Assembly (NCBI GenBank): GCA_018266835.1
Contig: JAFDZP010000002.1
Location: forward strand, 1,649,302 to 1,713,301
Origin: Bacteroidota bacterium
Lineage (GTDB): Bacteria; Bacteroidota; Ignavibacteria; Tepidaquicellales; Tepidaquicellaceae
Reading direction: 5' to 3'
Length of the DNA: 64,000 nt
Shown: piece after piece, positions 25,347 to 50,999 of the stretch
Numbering within the stretch: position 1 is the first letter of the stretch
How the letters are laid out: the number at the start of each line of letters is the position of its first letter
The notes under the pieces: model-generated
The model's input: the letters and a program-made list of their open reading frames with translations, nothing else
What the model was told of the DNA's origin: nothing
Databases searched by the model: none
Position numbers and translations under genes: made by a program

Positions 25347-25411
25347 GTTTTTGACGGATTTTGTGATGCTTAGTGTTGTAAAAACAATATTGATGATTTT
25401 TGAAATTCGTC
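25347..25411 (+). repeat. 65-bp direct repeat, copy 1
   Basis: It begins GTTTTTGACGGATTTTGT and ends TGAAATTCGTC. It differs from the copy at 25612-25676 at two neighbouring positions only (GA against TT). Confidence 0.85.
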
Positions 25412-25423
25412 TTATATAATTTA

Positions 25424-25461
25424 ACCACCCCCTTAATCCCCCTCCTTGTAAAGGAGGGGGA
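25424..25461 (+). repeat. C-rich palindromic element (copy A)
   Basis: ACCACCCCCTTAAT leads into an 11-bp perfect hairpin (25437-25447 with 25451-25461, loop GTA). It is inverted relative to copy B. Confidence 0.7.
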
Positions 25462-25539
25462 AACATTGGTAATCTTTTAAAATGAGGGGTTTTGACGTAT
25501 TTTGTGTATTCATCTAATTCCATTTATAAAATCTTATCC

Positions 25540-25577
25540 TCCCCCTCCTTTACAAGGAAGGGGACTGAGGGGGCGGT
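25540..25577 (-). repeat. C-rich palindromic element (copy B, inverted)
   Basis: Its reverse complement matches copy A at all but about 4 of 38 positions, including the hairpin and the ACCGCCCCC end. Confidence 0.7.
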
Positions 25578-25611
25578 ATCATTTAACATCAAAATTTTTT
25601 AAAAATGTCGG

Positions 25612-33121: not shown

Positions 33122-34669
33122 TTATTTTGGCGGTGCAGGAGGAATAATATTAAGGCTTCTTACAATCGCCTCTACAATGGGTCTGTATTGATCAAAATAT
33201 TGTTTCTTTATCTGAGCGTTTACCGAAAGCTTATCTGTCTTAAGGAAAATAAAAAATCTTAAATTAGTAGAGCCCGCTACAGTCTTCGGTTCGTTTTCAT
33301 ATGCAGTTAATGCGCTGTCATTCATCTGAAATGTATTCTTGAACTCAGCTGCATTGTAATCTTTACCTTCATTATCCAGTGATATAAAAATATTTGCAGT
33401 ACCGTTTTCTTTTGCAGTAGTGTCGGTTAATATTACACCCTTAAATTTCTCCACACTCTTATCGATGTTTCTCATATCAATAACTTTCCAGTTTTGAGGA
33501 TAACTCATTCGTAAGCCAAGTTCACCCTCACTGAAACCTTTCTTTAATGAATCAGGAATGCTGTAATTGCCTGTGACATTTTTCAGTGAATCAACCTTCT
33601 TTAAGCTATCGTTATTTGCCTGCAGCTTACGTAATGAATCTAATTGGCGTGTTGCATCATTTGTAAGATTTGAATCCTGCGGAATATTTATCTTCGGTCT
33701 TGTTATCTTCGGAGCCCTGATAATATTTTTCTTTATTACAGGAGGCTGTACTTTATCAGTCGGTGTTCCGTCTTCTTTTGGTTCTTCCTTAGGTTTATTC
33801 GGGTCTTCGTATTCTTTGAAATTTATTTTTACAGGAATATCATTTATAACTATTAGTCTCTTTTCCTGTTCGATTGTCTTTGTTTCAGTTTTCCCGTAGA
33901 AATTATAGAAAAGCAGCGAGCATATACAAGCGAATACAACTGCAGATATAATACCAATCGTCATATTTTTTCTGTAAAGCAGTCTGTTCAGATGGAAAGG
34001 ATTTTTCTTCCCTATCTTCTGCTCAAGGAGCTCATCTTCTGTTAAAGGAATTAGCGGCTCATCAGGTCTGCCCAGATCAACGGGCATAATGAGATTTTCT
34101 ACATCGGGATTTGGAGTAAAAGATACAGGCTGTACTAACTGCCCGTTTTCATCTTTTTTTTTTTCTACGATTAATTCGCCGGTGCTAGGATCAATTGAGA
34201 TTATAATTTCTACCTCTTGAATCTCTTCGCCCTGCTTAGGATGGAGATACAAACGATTGCTTTGTGTTTCCGTAAGGGACTTTGTATCCTTTACGGAACA
34301 ATCAATATTAACACCTTTTTTTGTCTTAACTCTTATTCTTAATAAATTTTCATTTATTAAGTTTATCTGGTAATTGCTTTCACCTGAGGCGGCAGCTGGT
34401 ACAGCTGGCTTAACCTGTTCTTTTTTCTCTTCAGTTTTTAATTCTTCCTGATTTTGTTCTTCTGTATTTACAGGTTCAGAAACTTCGGAAGTTTTAGTTT
34501 TTTCTTCTTTTATATCTTCAGTTACAACTTTCGGCGCAATGTTGTTAAGATTTTTAACTTCACCGGCTTCATATGCATTTATGTCGTCCAGAATTCTTTG
34601 CTCAAGAGTTTTAGTTTCTTCGTGTTTTATATCTTTTTCGTCGGTATTTTCTGTCAAATTATCGTTCAT
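33122..34669 (-). CDS. Single-pass membrane protein with acidic N-terminus and PsbP-like C-terminal domain
   Basis: The 515-residue protein starts with an acidic, low-complexity cytoplasmic region (1-95). A small beta domain (about 97-170; NYQINLINENLLRIRVKTKKG) comes next. A single membrane helix lies at about 236-258 (IGIISAVVFACICSLLFY). The extracytoplasmic part has a Pro/Lys-rich linker and a C-terminal domain (about 380-510) opening with LGLRMSYPQNWKVID, like PsbP/DUF1795 folds. Its layout (acidic cytoplasmic tail, helix, small envelope domain) recalls the SPOR protein at the left end. No family was recognised for the whole protein. It is convergent with the small-gene unit. Confidence 0.75.
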   Translation of the reverse strand: MNDNLTENTDEKDIKHEETKTLEQRILDDINAYEAGEVKNLNNIAPKVVTEDIKEEKTKTSEVSEPVNTEEQNQEELKTEEKKEQVKPAVPAAASGESNYQINLINENLLRIRVKTKKGVNIDCSVKDTKSLTETQSNRLYLHPKQGEEIQEVEIIISIDPSTGELIVEKKKDENGQLVQPVSFTPNPDVENLIMPVDLGRPDEPLIPLTEDELLEQKIGKKNPFHLNRLLYRKNMTIGIISAVVFACICSLLFYNFYGKTETKTIEQEKRLIVINDIPVKINFKEYEDPNKPKEEPKEDGTPTDKVQPPVIKKNIIRAPKITRPKINIPQDSNLTNDATRQLDSLRKLQANNDSLKKVDSLKNVTGNYSIPDSLKKGFSEGELGLRMSYPQNWKVIDMRNIDKSVEKFKGVILTDTTAKENGTANIFISLDNEGKDYNAAEFKNTFQMNDSALTAYENEPKTVAGSTNLRFFIFLKTDKLSVNAQIKKQYFDQYRPIVEAIVRSLNIIPPAPPK

Positions 34670-34828
34670 TTACTAAAGCCTTAAATTTAGTCATCTTAAA
34701 CTTAAGATTAAATTCATTCTTTAATATTTTTAATTCAAAAAAGGGTTGTTAAGTTCCATCAGTTTACGATTATTTTTCAATAAGTTTTCAAATTTCTGAA
34801 GATTTTTGCAAATTCTGCATTTTTGAGG
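34670..34828. other. Intergenic DNA between the PsbP-like gene and the four-way-junction element
   Basis: AT-rich, with no gene seen; it should hold the promoter of the minus-strand gene. The complete gap to pdxH runs to 35014 and contains the four-way-junction element at 34829-34931. A minus-strand open frame that crosses the element (34730-34939) is not called. Confidence 0.5.
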
Positions 34829-34931
34829 GGGCGCTCTTGTCCCGGCAAAGCCGGGACTCCTCAGCAGAAAGAGACAGGTTTTATCTGTCTCTTTCTGCTG
34901 AGGACTGAATCTTCGATTCAGAAGAGCGCCC
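34829..34931. repeat. Perfect four-way-junction palindromic element (103 nt)
   Basis: An outer stem GGGCGCTCTT / AAGAGCGCCC (34829-34838, 34922-34931) encloses three hairpins that abut with no free base. These are 34839-34857 (8-bp stem GTCCCGGC, AAA loop), 34858-34904 (20-bp perfect stem, 7-nt loop) and 34905-34921 (7-bp stem CTGAATC, TTC loop). All 103 bases except the loops are paired, on either strand. There is no coding content. It ends 83 nt before pdxH. It may be a mobile palindromic element, a structured RNA or a protein-binding DNA junction. The structure is certain; its function is unknown. Confidence 0.9.
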
Positions 34932-35014
34932 TCCTTCACCCAAAATAGTATATCAATTATTGAATTTAATCTCTCGCCTTTTCTTCCGAATTTTATTCAA
35001 ACAATTATAATACT

Positions 35015-35650
35015 ATGAACTACGCAGACTTAAGAAGAGAGTACATATCAAAAGATTTTGATATCAAAGACACCGATAAAAATCCGTTCGTTCAGTTTGA
35101 AACATGGTTCAGCGAAGCAATGGAAATAGATAAAGACGATACTAATGCATTTGTTCTTTCAACATGTTCAAAAGATGGAAAACCTTCATCAAGAATTATG
35201 CTGCTAAAAGGAGTTGATGATAAGGGTTTTGTTTTCTATACAAATTACCTCGGAAGAAAAAGCAAAGAGCTTTTAGAAAATCCTAACGCATCAATTTTAT
35301 TTTTCTTTAAAGAGCTTCACAGGCAAATCAGAATCGAAGGCAGGATTGAAAAAGTAAGCAGAGAAGAATCTGCTGAGTATTTTCATTCACGACCTGTTGA
35401 AAGTCAGATAGGTGCATGGACTTCAATCCAAAGTTCAAAAATCGAAAGCAGAAAAACTCTTGAAGAAAAATTCGAGAAGTATTCAAAAGAATTTAACGGA
35501 AATGAAGTTCCGCTTCCTGATTTCTGGGGAGGCTTCAGACTCATTCCCGATTACTTTGAATTCTGGCAGGGAAGAGAAAGCAGGCTTCACGACAGAATAA
35601 GCTACGAAAAAGAAAACGGCAGCTGGAATTTATCCCGCTTATCTCCGTAA
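35015..35650 (+). CDS. pdxH: Pyridoxamine 5'-phosphate oxidase
   Basis: PdxH is an FMN-dependent oxidase that makes pyridoxal 5'-phosphate. The 211-residue protein matches the family in length and motifs: LSTCSKDGKPSSRIMLLKG, FYTNYLGRKSKEL, ASILFFFKELHRQIRIEGR, SRPVESQIGAW, PDFWGGFRLIPDYFEFWQG and the terminal RLSP. It is a single gene. The four-way-junction element directly upstream would lie in its leader if transcription starts before it. PLP-dependent proteins in the window include glucan phosphorylase and the D-threonine-aldolase-like enzyme. Confidence 0.95.
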   Translation: MNYADLRREYISKDFDIKDTDKNPFVQFETWFSEAMEIDKDDTNAFVLSTCSKDGKPSSRIMLLKGVDDKGFVFYTNYLGRKSKELLENPNASILFFFKELHRQIRIEGRIEKVSREESAEYFHSRPVESQIGAWTSIQSSKIESRKTLEEKFEKYSKEFNGNEVPLPDFWGGFRLIPDYFEFWQGRESRLHDRISYEKENGSWNLSRLSP

Positions 35651-50768: not shown

Positions 50769-50789
50769 GCTGGTTGAATTAAAGAGAAT

Positions 50790-50914
50790 TAAACGCAAAG
50801 AGCGCAGAGATAACGCAAAGCTGCGCAAAGAAATTTCGTGAAATATTCAAAGAAATTAATTCAGTTAAACTTCTTAGCGGACTTTGCGAAGAACCTTCGC
50901 GCTCTTTGCGTTTA
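50790..50914. repeat. CGCAAAG-type inverted repeat
   Basis: TAAACGCAAAGAGCGC (50790-50805) and its exact reverse complement (50899-50914) flank about 93 nt that contain further CGCAAAG and CTTTGCG copies in both orientations. Such aaacgcaaag repeats are frequent between genes in Bacteroidota (recalled). It lies between the DUF4331 and TPR genes. Confidence 0.75.
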
Positions 50915-50999
50915 GTTATTATAATTGTGCTCATAATTTATTGTATTAAAATTCCTCCGGCAGAATTTCACCGGAGGAGATGTTCATAGAATTATTAAA

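What the first reader, a model, noticed from the sequence alone, without database searches (positions are those of the whole stretch)
34829..34931. 103-nt element folds into a four-way junction with no unpaired base outside the loops
The outer 10-bp stem and three inner hairpins (8, 20 and 7 bp) abut exactly: 34829-34838, 34839-34857, 34858-34904, 34905-34921, 34922-34931. All arms are perfect complements. A chance origin is very unlikely. It has no poly-T tail, so it is not a simple terminator. It may be a mobile palindromic element, a structured RNA in the pdxH leader, or a DNA junction recognised by a protein.
Basis: seen in the sequence. Interest (0 to 1): 0.85.

Follow-up and report, generated by a model that had tools for sequence, protein, structure and literature searches.

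The report
Cross-shaped palindromic DNA element family
The 103-base cross is one of about 30 scattered copies, found only in one bacterial genus among the genomes searched, in which almost every base has changed yet the cross shape is kept base pair by base pair; it looks like a small mobile DNA palindrome recognised by shape rather than by sequence.

Summary
The fold is real and exact: a 10-bp outer stem and three abutting hairpins with no unpaired base at the junction (DNA z -13.8, RNA z -14.4; 0 of 200 shuffles). By sequence it is single-copy in its genome. Covariance models found 14 copies there and 16 in the one other species of the genus held, and none in 27 further genomes of the family. 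All copies lie between genes, in divergent, convergent and co-directional contexts. Across 25 loci, 48 of 49 pairs changed on both sides while 96.2% of cells stay paired. G·T (23) and A·C (20) departures are equally rare, so pairing is kept at DNA level, not on a transcribed strand. The window's own site is empty in the sister species. Of 10 comparable sites, 7 are empty, 2 are occupied at the same place, and 1 has moved and inverted. There is no target duplication, no REP tag, and no Y1/RAYT transposase in the genome. Best reading: a new family of small, non-autonomous, cross-shaped palindromic elements, spread as folded single strands, with arms kept perfect by template switching and/or selection on shape. 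The enzyme is unknown and movement is inferred. The pdxH-leader RNA reading is not supported.

The parts
34829..34838 (+). outer stem, 5' arm GGGCGCTCTT (pairs with 34922-34931; weak extension to 34827)
   Evidence: covaries in family, helix 1
34839..34857 (+). hairpin 1, GTCCCGGC-AAA-GCCGGGAC, 8 bp, 3-nt loop; family motif GTCCCG
   Evidence: identical copy in the sister-species element L015/L051; 8 of 8 pairs doubly changed in family
34858..34904 (+). hairpin 2, 20 perfect bp (22 with G-T), in the family mostly 20-22 bp with 3-4 nt loop; sequence almost fully replaced between copies
   Evidence: 22 of 22 pairs doubly changed in family
34905..34921 (+). hairpin 3, CTGAATC-TTC-GATTCAG, 7 bp, 3-nt loop
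   Evidence: 7 of 7 pairs doubly changed in family
34922..34931 (+). outer stem, 3' arm AAGAGCGCCC
34759..34948 (.). insertion region: 190 bp here against 66 bp in the sister species, flanks alignable on both sides; element absent there
33122..34669 (-). neighbouring gene, 515 aa, no Pfam family; divergent from pdxH (context only)
35015..35650 (+). neighbouring gene pdxH (pyridoxamine 5'-phosphate oxidase); context only, its orthologue lacks the element upstream

Best explanation
A previously undescribed family of small (about 103-114 bp), GC-rich, cross-shaped palindromic DNA elements, dispersed between genes in one genus. Shown: shared architecture (outer GGCGC-type stem, GTCCCG hairpin of about 8 bp, central hairpin of about 20-22 bp, hairpin of about 7 bp, all abutting); presence/absence differences between species at orthologous sites; pairing kept at DNA level through near-complete sequence change. 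Inferred: the element spreads non-autonomously as a folded single strand (for example on the lagging-strand template) handled in trans by an enzyme that reads shape, not sequence; the arms are kept perfect by replication template switching (one arm copied from the other) together with loss of copies that no longer form the cross.
For: 14 + 16 copies found by structure models in the two species of the genus. 48 of 49 pairs doubly changed, 96.2% of cells paired, 513 doubly changed cells against 138 in shuffles and 83-104 in slid controls; independently 32 of 49 pairs on 5 elements aligned without a covariance model. Non-Watson-Crick cells G·T 23 and A·C 20 of 1221. Own site empty in the sister species with alignable flanks; a second near-clean empty site at A1133. 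Sites A105, A1080, A1311, A6_125 and A1744 also lack it in the sister species. Element GC 54% against 35% in flanks. Mixed gene contexts and unrelated neighbouring genes. GTCCCG-type hairpins occur in the fetched stretches of the window's genome almost only inside crosses.
Against: No two copies exceed about 84% identity, so no movement is recent. No target-site duplication. No mobilising enzyme identified; Y1_Tnp is absent from this genome. Two sites are occupied in both species at the same place (A843/B22b and A857/B22a), which a host function would also explain. Gain in one species cannot be told from loss in the other with only two species.
Confidence: 0.55

Rival explanations
1. A resident DNA structure with a host function: a cruciform or junction bound by a nucleoid, repair or supercoiling-related protein, kept by selection on shape.
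For: Shape and arm lengths are tightly kept while sequence turns over; two sites occupied in both species; no recent near-identical copies.
Against: 7 of 10 comparable sites are empty in the sister species; none in 27 other genomes of the family; no common class of neighbouring gene.
Confidence: 0.25
2. No selection on shape at all: a multi-hairpin palindrome inherited from a few founders whose arms are mechanically re-matched by replication template switching.
For: Template switching is documented to create perfect stems and multi-base compensatory changes (PMC8794818); hairpin 2 changes wholesale beside conserved hairpins 1 and 3 in A5_370/B42.
Against: It does not by itself explain why three hairpins and an outer stem keep their lengths and exact abutment across about 30 copies, nor the empty sites.
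Confidence: 0.1
3. A structured RNA or a terminator / mRNA-end element, including a pdxH leader.
For: Very stable RNA fold; about 10 copies lie within 25 bp of a stop codon.
Against: G·T is not favoured over A·C, whereas selected RNA helices tolerate G-U; six copies lie between divergent genes; no poly-T tail here; no Rfam match; not upstream of pdxH in the sister species.
Confidence: 0.1

Closest known systems
Repetitive extragenic palindromes (GTAG and CGTC REPs, REPINs)
   Same: Dispersed palindromic DNA between genes, heterogeneous in sequence, presumed mobilised in trans; CGTC REPs also lack a known transposase (PMC3733652).
   Different: REPs are single 20-40 bp hairpins with an unpaired GTAG or CGTC tag, in high copy; here about 103 bp, four helices, no tag, about 15 copies per genome, and no Y1_Tnp gene in the window's genome.
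Mitochondrial GC clusters / double-hairpin elements (yeast, Allomyces and other mitochondria)
   Same: Short GC-rich palindromes in AT-rich DNA, sporadic sites, rapid diversification, merger and shuffling of hairpins, TE-like without a known enzyme (PMC4478555).
   Different: Those are mitochondrial, with simpler hairpin arrangements; here a bacterial chromosome and a fixed cross of outer stem plus three hairpins.
[quoted passage not shown]
   Same: Short non-autonomous elements with terminal inverted repeats.
   Different: No target-site duplication and no parent insertion sequence identified.
Integron attC sites
   Same: Sequence varies while a folded single strand is the recognised form (own knowledge).
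   Different: attC recognition uses extrahelical bases (own knowledge); here helices of the best copies are uninterrupted and there is no cassette array. Integron integrase not searched.

Membership tests
REP / REPIN | unpaired GTAG or CGTC tag at one end of the palindrome | tested here: not met
   no GTAG/CGTC on either strand at the edges of 30 elements
REP / REPIN | RAYT-type Y1 transposase in the genome | tested here: not met
   PF01797: 0 matches in the window's genome (99% complete); 4 in the sister species, partial over the profile
REP / REPIN | unit of 20-40 bp with a single hairpin | tested here: not met
   about 103-114 bp typical, four helices
MITE | terminal inverted repeats | tested here: met
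   outer stem arms, mostly 9-12 bp, in nearly all copies
MITE | target-site duplication | tested here: not met
   17 of 30 have no direct repeat of 3 nt or more at the edges; the best is 5 nt in one copy
MITE | parent transposase with the same ends | not tested
   no full-genome search for long elements with these ends was made
Mobile palindromic element (general) | empty orthologous site in a relative | tested here: met
   window site and A1133 site with alignable flanks
Structured RNA | pairing kept preferentially on one strand (G-U tolerated, A-C not) | tested here: not met
   G·T 23, A·C 20 of 1221 cells
Structured RNA | member of a described Rfam family | tested here: not met
   no match at gathering thresholds in the window
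Intrinsic terminator | T-run after the stem and position at gene ends | tested here: not met
   no T-run at the window copy; six copies between divergent genes
Integron attC | extrahelical bases and an integron integrase | tested here: inconclusive
   no bulged bases in the best copies; integrase not searched

The most novel reading that the evidence does not exclude
A mobile DNA class recognised purely by a three-dimensional four-way-junction shape, whose sequence is free to turn over almost completely, copied as a folded single strand by an unidentified junction-specific enzyme.
Probability: 0.25. Interest if true: 0.88.

Novelty: new variant of a known kind. Interest (0 to 1): 0.72.

Why it matters
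Dispersed bacterial palindromes are usually single hairpins defined by sequence. Here a fixed, four-helix cross survives across about 30 loci while nearly every base pair is replaced and both DNA strands are constrained alike. That makes a clean natural test of how perfect palindromes are maintained (template switching against selection on shape) and of whether a bacterial enzyme can mobilise DNA by junction shape alone.

Tried and rejected
pdxH-leader riboswitch or sRNA: no Rfam match, absent from the orthologue, no strand bias. Intrinsic terminator: no T-run and wrong contexts. REP/RAYT: no tag, no Y1_Tnp in the genome. Sequence-only search: one copy; hairpin 1 alone is a common hairpin in unrelated genomes, mostly as simple hairpins. 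Phage and plasmid collections: no phage match and one 29-base plasmid match; viral contigs gave no cross. G117 and G147 hits: G117 is a TGTCATTCTGA-type repeat with a GTCCCG hairpin, G147 looks like chance. Association with a gene class: none seen for the window genome's copies. Literature search found no matching bacterial family, but subscription papers are not held.

Full report
Observation. It is the minimum-free-energy and centroid fold with DNA and RNA parameters, with z-scores of -13.8 and -14.4 and 0 of 200 shuffles reaching it. It lies in a 345-bp divergent intergenic region between a 515-aa gene (33122-34669, minus) and pdxH (35015-35650, plus). No Rfam family matches the window.

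Copies. That match is a second complete cross with nearly the same outer stem and an identical hairpin 1 but different hairpins 2 and 3. A covariance model built from the window element alone found four copies in each genome. A model from five copies and one from 31 matches at 25 loci raised this to 14 in the window's genome and 16 in the sister species. A few are enlarged or degenerate (B1, B19, B41, L152). No other genome of the family had one (27 genomes, 135 candidates scored in each). In class- and phylum-wide samples of about 390 genomes each, only these two species gave true crosses, but those searches scored only 9-10 candidates per genome with stricter filters, so absence there is provisional.

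Architecture. In canonical orientation: outer stem of mostly 9-12 bp rich in GGCGC; hairpin 1 GTCCCGnn with a loop of 3-5 nt; central hairpin mostly 20-22 bp (some with internal mismatches near the base) with a 3-4 nt loop and AAATTGA near the loop in most copies; hairpin 3 of 7-9 bp, often CGAAYC. The helices abut with no or few unpaired bases. A mechanical scan that knows nothing of the model recovers most of these crosses and finds none in 387 kb of unrelated genomes or in shuffled sequence.

Covariation. On five copies aligned by MAFFT without a model, 32 of 49 pairs show a change on both sides and 96.3% of cells are paired. On 31 rows fitted to the model, 48 of 49 pairs do, with 513 doubly changed cells against 138 in shuffles and 83-104 in slid controls. 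The second alignment leans towards the structure, and six loci are in it on both strands. Without those duplicates the departures from Watson-Crick are G·T 23, A·C 20 and 32 others of 1221 cells; by thermodynamic folding G·T pairs are 1.7% on one strand and 1.2% on the other. A helix selected as RNA should tolerate G-U on its own strand and not A·C, so the constraint is on DNA. Compensation alone does not prove selection: template switching during replication can create and repair perfect stems (PMC8794818).

Sites. The copies are intergenic in mixed contexts, about ten within 25 bp of a stop codon and six between divergent genes; neighbours in the window's genome share no family. In the sister species the region upstream of pdxH aligns on both sides and lacks the element (190 bp against 66 bp). 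A1133 is similarly empty (178 against 91 bp). A105, A1080, A1311, A6_125 and A1744 have no cross at the corresponding place. A843/B22b and A857/B22a are occupied in both species with strongly diverged arms. A5_370/B42 lies beside the same gene but inverted and about 400 bp away. The B11 site is empty in the window's genome. There are no consistent target duplications and no REP tags. Copies are at most about 84% identical, so the family is old or fast-evolving.

Mechanism. I commit to a non-autonomous mobile palindrome handled as folded single-stranded DNA, with arms held perfect by template switching and by loss of broken copies. Dispersal and DNA-level pairing are shown; the single-strand step, the enzyme and the maintenance mechanism are inferred. 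The Y1/RAYT class is not it in this genome (PF01797 absent). A host-used DNA structure remains the main rival because of the two shared sites.

Known relatives. It works like REP elements (PMC3733652) and mitochondrial GC clusters (PMC4478555) but is not a REP: tag, unit size and transposase tests fail. I found no description of this family in the open literature searched; subscription papers are not covered.

Noticed in passing
window 50787-50917: A second long palindrome, 19-bp arms (95% complementary) 93 nt apart, AACGCAAAGAGCGC-type, DNA fold z -6.4; a different repeat type.
   Followed up: partly
window 7342, 25359, 25624; L108 9854, L112 9867, L114 9882, L117 9887: Motif GAATCCGTCAAAAATTCATCAAA (11-bp repeats) lies within about 50 bp of four of the crosses and elsewhere; two window copies flank a 65-nt inverted repeat at 25397-25604.
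   Followed up: partly
L119 9627 and 9801, L122 8308 and 18975, L121 11708, L123 13926: The sister species carries another small palindrome family, GTTACGAAGCTCCAGCTTCGTAAC / TCCTTACGAAGCTCCAGCTTCGTAAGGA, not seen in the window genome's stretches.
   Followed up: no
L082 1501-1602; L161 1305-1323 and 1454-1472: The same GTCCCG hairpin sits inside unrelated TGTCATTCTGA... and ...GCAATGAC palindromic repeats in another family of the class and in a viral contig, as if it were a reusable module.
   Followed up: partly
L129 8065-8092, L126 19377-19404: GTAGAGACGCAATAC-TTGCGTCTCTAC palindrome in the sister species, two copies seen.
   Followed up: no
L125 9945-10066, L122 9908-10038, L152 9895-10022: Enlarged crosses in which a further hairpin is nested inside or extends hairpin 1 or 3, suggesting growth by hairpin-in-hairpin insertion.
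   Followed up: no
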